Shown here in pieces: positions 29,922-29,949 of a DNA stretch of 64,000 nt; positions within the stretch are counted from its first letter, which is position 1; the number at the start of each line of letters is the position of its first letter. The notes under the pieces were generated by a model. That model worked only from the letters and a program-made list of their open reading frames with translations, did not search any database and was not told the origin of the DNA. The DNA comes from Bacteroidia bacterium. GTDB lineage: Bacteria; Bacteroidota; Bacteroidia; 2-12-FULL-35-15. The stretch lies in contig JAURXZ010000033.1 of assembly GCA_030654175.1 (NCBI GenBank), positions 62,001-126,000 of the forward strand, in the 5' to 3' direction. A program made the position numbers and the translations under genes.

Positions 29922-29949
29922 TTGTCCTATAATTAATATTATGTTAAAT
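29922..29949. other. dif-like XerCD recombination site
   Basis: TTGTCCTATAA-TTAATA-TTATGTTAAAT; the right arm equals the E. coli dif XerD arm TTATGTTAAAT, with 11-6-11 architecture; left arm keeps only ATAA at its inner end. Confidence 0.6.

What the first reader, a model, noticed from the sequence alone, without database searches (positions are those of the whole stretch)
29922..29949. dif-like XerCD site exactly at the right edge of the mobile element
TTGTCCTATAA-TTAATA-TTATGTTAAAT has the 11-6-11 dif layout. Its right arm is identical to the classical XerD-binding arm TTATGTTAAAT, and the left arm keeps ATAA next to the 6-bp centre. It lies in the gap between the last element gene (ends 29825) and the first host gene (30225). 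No integrase is visible in the window. This is what one would expect from an element integrated at dif by host XerCD, as for CTXphi-type and gonococcal-island-type elements.
Basis: partly seen in the sequence, partly recalled or inferred. Interest (0 to 1): 0.85.

Follow-up and report, generated by a model that had tools for sequence, protein, structure and literature searches.

The report
Integrase-less 34-kb element inserted at dif
A 34-kb virus-like DNA element has inserted itself into an uncultured Bacteroidota chromosome exactly at the site where the cell's own XerC/XerD enzymes untangle chromosomes, and it carries no recognisable recombinase of its own, so it most likely borrows the host's enzymes to integrate.

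Summary
The 28-mer at 29922-29949 is real and is the right attachment site of a mobile element at the host's dif. Its partner lies 4.4 kb left of the window, on the same contig and strand (C5:57585-57612, TTGTCTTATAA-TTAATA-TTATAGGAGGG): same XerC arm and centre, degenerate XerD arm. Joining the left half of attL to the right half of attR gives TTGTCTTATAATTAATATTATGTTAAAT, exactly the single-copy dif of relatives. In one relative, cumulative GC skew peaks at dif. Two relatives carry left- and right-flank genes around one unoccupied dif. The 34.3-kb element has no tyrosine or serine recombinase; the host has XerD and a XerC-like protein. Three relatives carry dif 71-115 bp upstream of a homologue of the element's last gene (197 aa); one (G025) also has the matching left end. 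The predicted attP (good XerC arm, identical centre, bad XerD arm) resembles TLCphi and the gonococcal island, not CTXphi. The element looks viral: endolysin, and a conserved 237-aa protein modelled as a jelly roll with weak matches to viral capsids. Verdict: a Xer-exploiting integrative element (IMEX), a new variant of a known kind. No circular form was seen; an FtsKgamma-like mini-protein and att-flanking boxes are leads only.

The parts
29922..29949 (+). attR = dif: XerC arm 29922-29932 (element-derived), centre TTAATA 29933-29938, XerD arm 29939-29949 (host-derived)
1..29949 (.). part of the 34.3-kb element inside the window; it continues about 4.4 kb left of the window to attL at C5:57585-57612 (TTGTCTTATAATTAATATTATAGGAGGG)
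29232..29825 (-). 197-aa att-linked protein; in the genomes held, every homologue whose upstream DNA is on the contig has dif 71-115 bp upstream (3 relatives + this one)
26368..26640 (-). 90-aa FtsKgamma-like (PF09397) mini-protein; lead only
15526..17769 (-). 747-aa hallmark protein of the element family (transglutaminase-like by eye, no Pfam hit)
14020..14733 (-). 237-aa predicted jelly-roll protein, candidate major capsid protein
12697..13872 (-). three small conserved ORFs (128, 130, 130 aa) next to the capsid candidate
9753..10523 (-). endolysin (GH19-type, phrog_181)
992..5365 (-). Strawberry-notch-type helicase, 1457 aa
5370..6392 (-). DNA methyltransferase, 340 aa
25866..26309 (-). nucleoside deoxyribosyltransferase-like phage protein (phrog_12607)
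30225..31859 (-). first host gene right of attR (POT transporter)

Best explanation
The site is the right-hand junction of an IMEX (integrative mobile element exploiting Xer), a 34.3-kb virus-like element inserted at the chromosomal dif. A circular form with attP TTGTCCTATAA-TTAATA-TTATAGGAGGG is inferred to have recombined with host dif TTGTCTTATAA-TTAATA-TTATGTTAAAT by host XerCD. Because XerC arm and centre match, both strand exchanges are possible. The product has a regenerated, nearly perfect dif on the right (still usable for dimer resolution) and a site with a poor XerD arm on the left, which should slow excision. Shown: both att sites, attB in relatives, unoccupied sites, independent occupied sites, no integrase, host Xer proteins. 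Inferred: XerCD catalysis, circular form, direction, stability and order of strand exchange.
For: Left partner, same strand, 20/21 core match. Rebuilt attB equals the single-copy dif of relatives within the genus and of other families of the class. Unoccupied sites: G012 (L171) and G019 (L118) carry C5 left-flank genes and right-flank genes around one dif. Independent occupied sites: G025, G004 and G015 have dif 75, 71 and 115 bp from the start of the 197-aa gene homologue; G025 also has the matching left end (half-site, 74% DNA identity over 133 bp, identical 21-bp box 42 bp inside). No PF00589 or PF00239 in the element. Host XerD, and XerC best hit. GC-skew peak at dif in G009.
Against: No circular junction was observed: an exact search for the predicted attP in viral contigs found nothing, and metagenome contigs were not searchable. 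The genome is a draft assembly. The XerC hit is 20 bits below the TIGR02224 cut-off. In G015 the element end sits in the opposite orientation to dif, with a mosaic structure split over two contigs. The related ~15-17-kb elements elsewhere in this genome are not at dif and use an unknown integration route.
Confidence: 0.93

Rival explanations
1. The element targets dif but is moved by a recombinase in trans or now lost, such as a mobile XerD paralogue of the kind found in G015, rather than by the resident XerC/XerD pair.
For: G015 carries a XerD paralogue (79% identical to G000 XerD, over the TIGR02225 cut-off) 1.1 kb from a dif-like site, among AbiE-like genes.
Against: Nothing like it is in the G000 element; G000 has one clear XerD and one XerC-like protein.
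Confidence: 0.06
2. The attL/attR resemblance is accidental: a native dif next to an unrelated element whose left end lies elsewhere.
For: The left copy matches only 21 of 28 bp over the full site.
Against: Expected 3e-5 such core matches in the relevant 40 kb; unoccupied-site synteny; a second left end with the same core and identical box spacing in G025.
Confidence: 0.01
3. It is an old, immobile remnant: inserted once by XerCD but no longer able to excise or form particles (compatible with the best explanation of its origin).
For: attL has a badly degenerate XerD arm, and modified dif copies stabilise LME-1 and GGI (PMC9765430).
Against: Long intact ORFs and close homologues on other contigs, including ones of 34-39 kb, fit a live family. 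A poor XerD arm in attP does not block TLCphi (PMC5357621). Activity in this strain is untested.
Confidence: 0.3

Closest known systems
Gonococcal genomic island (GGI) and LME-1 of Legionella (large IMEX)
   Same: Integrate at dif through host Xer; one perfect and one modified dif copy flank the integrated form (PMC5357621, PMC9765430).
   Different: No conjugation genes recognised here; virus-like gene block; host is an uncultured Bacteroidota with two Xer proteins (LME-1 uses single XerL); no sequence relationship was tested.
TLCphi of Vibrio cholerae
   Same: attP has a matching XerC arm and centre and a divergent XerD arm (PMC5357621).
   Different: TLCphi is a small vibriophage satellite with its own activator XafT; XafT homology was not tested here.
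Bacteroidetes dif prophages: BMV microviruses (PMC3091885) and PhiCjT23-like phages (PMC9719478)
   Same: Same phylum, dif-like flanks, host XerC/D proposed for integration.
   Different: Those are about 5-8 kb ssDNA phages with other capsid and replication genes; this is 34 kb.
CTXphi
   Same: XerCD-dependent insertion at dif.
   Different: CTXphi folds two palindromic attP sites on ssDNA (PMC5357621); only one dif-like site per end was seen here and the centres are identical.

Membership tests
IMEX | flanked by directly repeated dif-like sites | tested here: met
   C5:57585-57612 and 91922-91949, both +
IMEX | inserted at the chromosomal dif | tested here: met
   rebuilt attB equals dif of relatives; unoccupied sites; GC-skew peak in G009
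IMEX | no own site-specific recombinase | tested here: met
   no PF00589/PF00239 hit in the element; Pfam scans of most ORFs
IMEX | host encodes XerC and XerD | tested here: met
   XerD 346 bits over cut-off; XerC is best model for the second protein at 314.6 bits but under its cut-off of 335
IMEX | integration depends on XerC/XerD | not testable with these tools
   needs genetics or in vitro recombination
TLCphi/GGI-type attP | XerC arm and centre match dif, XerD arm diverges | tested here: met
   TTGTCCTATAA-TTAATA-TTATAGGAGGG against dif
CTXphi-type attP | two inverted dif-like sites close together | tested here: not met
   no second dif-like site near the ends in the C5 scan
Tailed phage (Caudoviricetes) | terminase, portal, HK97-type capsid | tested here: inconclusive
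   none hit among the element ORFs scanned against PHROGs/Pfam; remote homologues may be missed
Single-jelly-roll virus | jelly-roll major capsid protein | tested here: inconclusive
   237-aa model pLDDT 81; best PDB hit SPV1 E 4.4e-5 but TM 0.38/0.48
FtsKgamma-type XerD activator | R1289-equivalent residue that bridges XerD E184 (PMC5052618) | tested here: not met
   E. coli peptide RQFRIGYNR aligns with IKFYKGYNW in the element protein; the R1289 position is I

The most novel reading that the evidence does not exclude
An undescribed lineage of tailless, jelly-roll-capsid temperate viruses of Bacteroidota integrates 34-kb genomes at dif through host XerCD and carries its own Xer-control module: the att-linked 197-aa protein acting at the conserved boxes beside att (AACCTTTTAAAAGGTTGCAGT 42 bp inside attL, TGCAAAGCAAC 40-46 bp inside attR), perhaps helped by an FtsKgamma-like mini-protein.
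Probability: 0.15. Interest if true: 0.8.

Novelty: new variant of a known kind. Interest (0 to 1): 0.55.

Why it matters
The dif-hijacking elements reported from Bacteroidetes in the papers read here are small ssDNA phages of about 5-8 kb; a 34-kb virus-like one from a family without recognised relatives in the phage collection searched widens what uses this route. The data also give a sequence-supported dif for a Bacteroidota clade, with unoccupied and occupied sites, and offer a concrete candidate gene (197 aa, att-linked in all four loci that could be checked) and candidate accessory DNA boxes for how such elements might escape the cell's FtsK control of Xer recombination.

Tried and rejected
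Degenerate dif pattern on the genome: too noisy to use. Other exact copies of the XerD arm in the genome: six more places, no dif layout. Exact attP search in viral contigs: nothing. The 237-aa protein alone found no viral contig, but its alignment found one 38.8-kb IMG/VR contig sharing the virion-like block; a loose dif pattern in it gave only matches with 2 mismatches, no more than the control. The 197-aa alignment found no viral contig, and the protein has no match in plasmid or phage records. dif-like ends or direct repeats at the related C31 and C44 elements: none convincing. Fold search for the 197-aa protein: no PDB match below E 0.001; its weak Mob_Pre hit (E 0.01) is absent in two homologues and was dismissed. 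The FtsKgamma hit was treated as weak: below the Pfam cut-off, no comparable hit outside FtsK elsewhere in the genus, key Arg missing. No paper holding IMEX, Bacteroidota and dif together was found.

Full report
Observation. The 28-mer at 29922-29949 is as described. It is the only such sequence in the 5.1-Mb genome within three mismatches, between the last element ORF (ends 29825) and the first host ORF (30225). The window is contig C5:62001-126000.

The other end. Scanning the contig found C5:57585-57612, TTGTCTTATAA-TTAATA-TTATAGGAGGG, same strand, matching the XerC arm and centre in 20 of 21 positions. A base-composition estimate gives 3e-5 such matches in 40 kb on one strand, and shuffles gave none. 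The distance between the two sites is 34,337 bp.

It is dif. Joining the left half of attL to the right half of attR gives TTGTCTTATAATTAATATTATGTTAAAT. In the search of relatives, 31 genomes (G000 included) have it within three mismatches, one copy each, including genomes of other families in the class. In relative G009 the cumulative GC skew rises to dif and falls after it. G012 and G019 carry genes of the C5 left flank (in G012 the 49522 dehydrogenase gene at 94% identity and the 50657 gene; in G019 the 50657 and 52707 genes) and of the right flank (97145, 98452) around one dif, so the 34 kb is an insertion.

Independent cases. The 197-aa protein encoded next to attR has homologues in three other genomes whose upstream DNA is on the contig: G025, G004 and G015 (found both in the genus loci and by a scan of 85,488 genomes). 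In all three a dif lies 71-115 bp upstream of its start; a fourth homologue is cut at the contig end. G025 and G004 have the C5 orientation; G015 has the opposite one and a mosaic structure. In G004 the XerC arm next to the element is ATATATTATAA, as expected if the element supplies that arm. G025 has a left half-site ATGTCTTATAA-TTAATA-TTATAAGTGAG followed by DNA 74% identical to the C5 left end over 133 bp, with the same 21-bp box AACCTTTTAAAAGGTTGCAGT exactly 42 bp inside; that box occurs exactly in only these two places in 37 genomes.

Recombinases. Eight tyrosine recombinases and four serine recombinases were found in the genome, none in the element. XerD passes its model; the XerC candidate has XerC as best model but is below the cut-off. 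So host XerCD is the most likely agent; this is inference.

Mechanism. attP would be TTGTCCTATAA-TTAATA-TTATAGGAGGG. The matching XerC arm and centre with a divergent XerD arm is how attP of TLCphi and difGGI are described (PMC5357621). CTXphi-type insertion of folded ssDNA is disfavoured. Integration leaves dif one base off on the right, so dimer resolution should survive, and a poor site on the left; modified copies of this kind stabilise LME-1 and are found at GGI (PMC9765430). Whether XerD or XerC acts first is open.

What the element is. It encodes an endolysin, a Strawberry-notch helicase, DNA methyltransferases and a nucleoside deoxyribosyltransferase-like phage protein. Its core block recurs at three more places in the same genome and in relatives and in one 38.8-kb IMG/VR contig; the hallmark and capsid-candidate proteins have no match in 50,697 phage records. 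The 237-aa protein is modelled as a jelly roll (pLDDT 81) and its best fold matches are viral capsid proteins, led by SPV1 (E 4.4e-5), but TM-scores stay under 0.5. Reading: a virus-like element, perhaps tailless; not proven.

Control of Xer. A 90-aa protein resembles FtsKgamma (E 1.5e-6, below cut-off) and is the only such domain outside FtsK with more than a marginal score in 37 genomes. The arginine that matters most for XerD activation in E. coli (R1289, PMC5052618) is isoleucine here, and no copy was found in the dif-linked relatives, so it is a weak lead. The 197-aa protein (short beta strands plus a helical bundle, no fold match) is the better candidate because of its constant linkage to att; its function is unknown and a role in Xer control is a guess.

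Limits. Draft genomes; no reads; metagenome contigs were not searchable; no circular form seen; genes between attL and the core block (a TPR-SpoIIE protein and a D12 methyltransferase) are inside the att sites but could be cargo.

Noticed in passing
G000 C44:~184.5-199k, C31:~438-453k, C6:~472-487k: Three more ~15-17-kb elements share the virion-like block and, in C44 and C31, a fused methyltransferase-helicase; no dif-like ends found at C31 or C44 and no tyrosine recombinase nearby; integration route unknown.
   Followed up: partly
L160 (G015 C72) 16233-18317: dif-like site GTGTCTTACAATTAATATTATGTTAAGC 1.1 kb from a XerD paralogue set among AbiE-like genes and a restriction/defence cluster: possibly another dif island with its own XerD.
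   Followed up: partly
window 26368-26640: Stand-alone FtsKgamma-like mini-protein inside a dif-integrated element; only one close homologue found in 5.8 billion proteins.
   Followed up: yes
L173 (G003 C40) 9998-10025: dif with a foreign XerC arm (TCTAACCATAA) next to a type I restriction-like cluster: probably a different element at dif.
   Followed up: no
C5:92031-92170 (window 30031-30170): Repeat right of attR that recurs on C51 and C44 of the same genome, possibly a REP-like intergenic repeat.
   Followed up: no
C5:57655-57720: Just inside attL: 16-bp perfect palindrome AACCTTTTAAAAGGTT followed by a hairpin (AAACCATTGC...GCAATGGTTT) that may be a terminator.
   Followed up: partly
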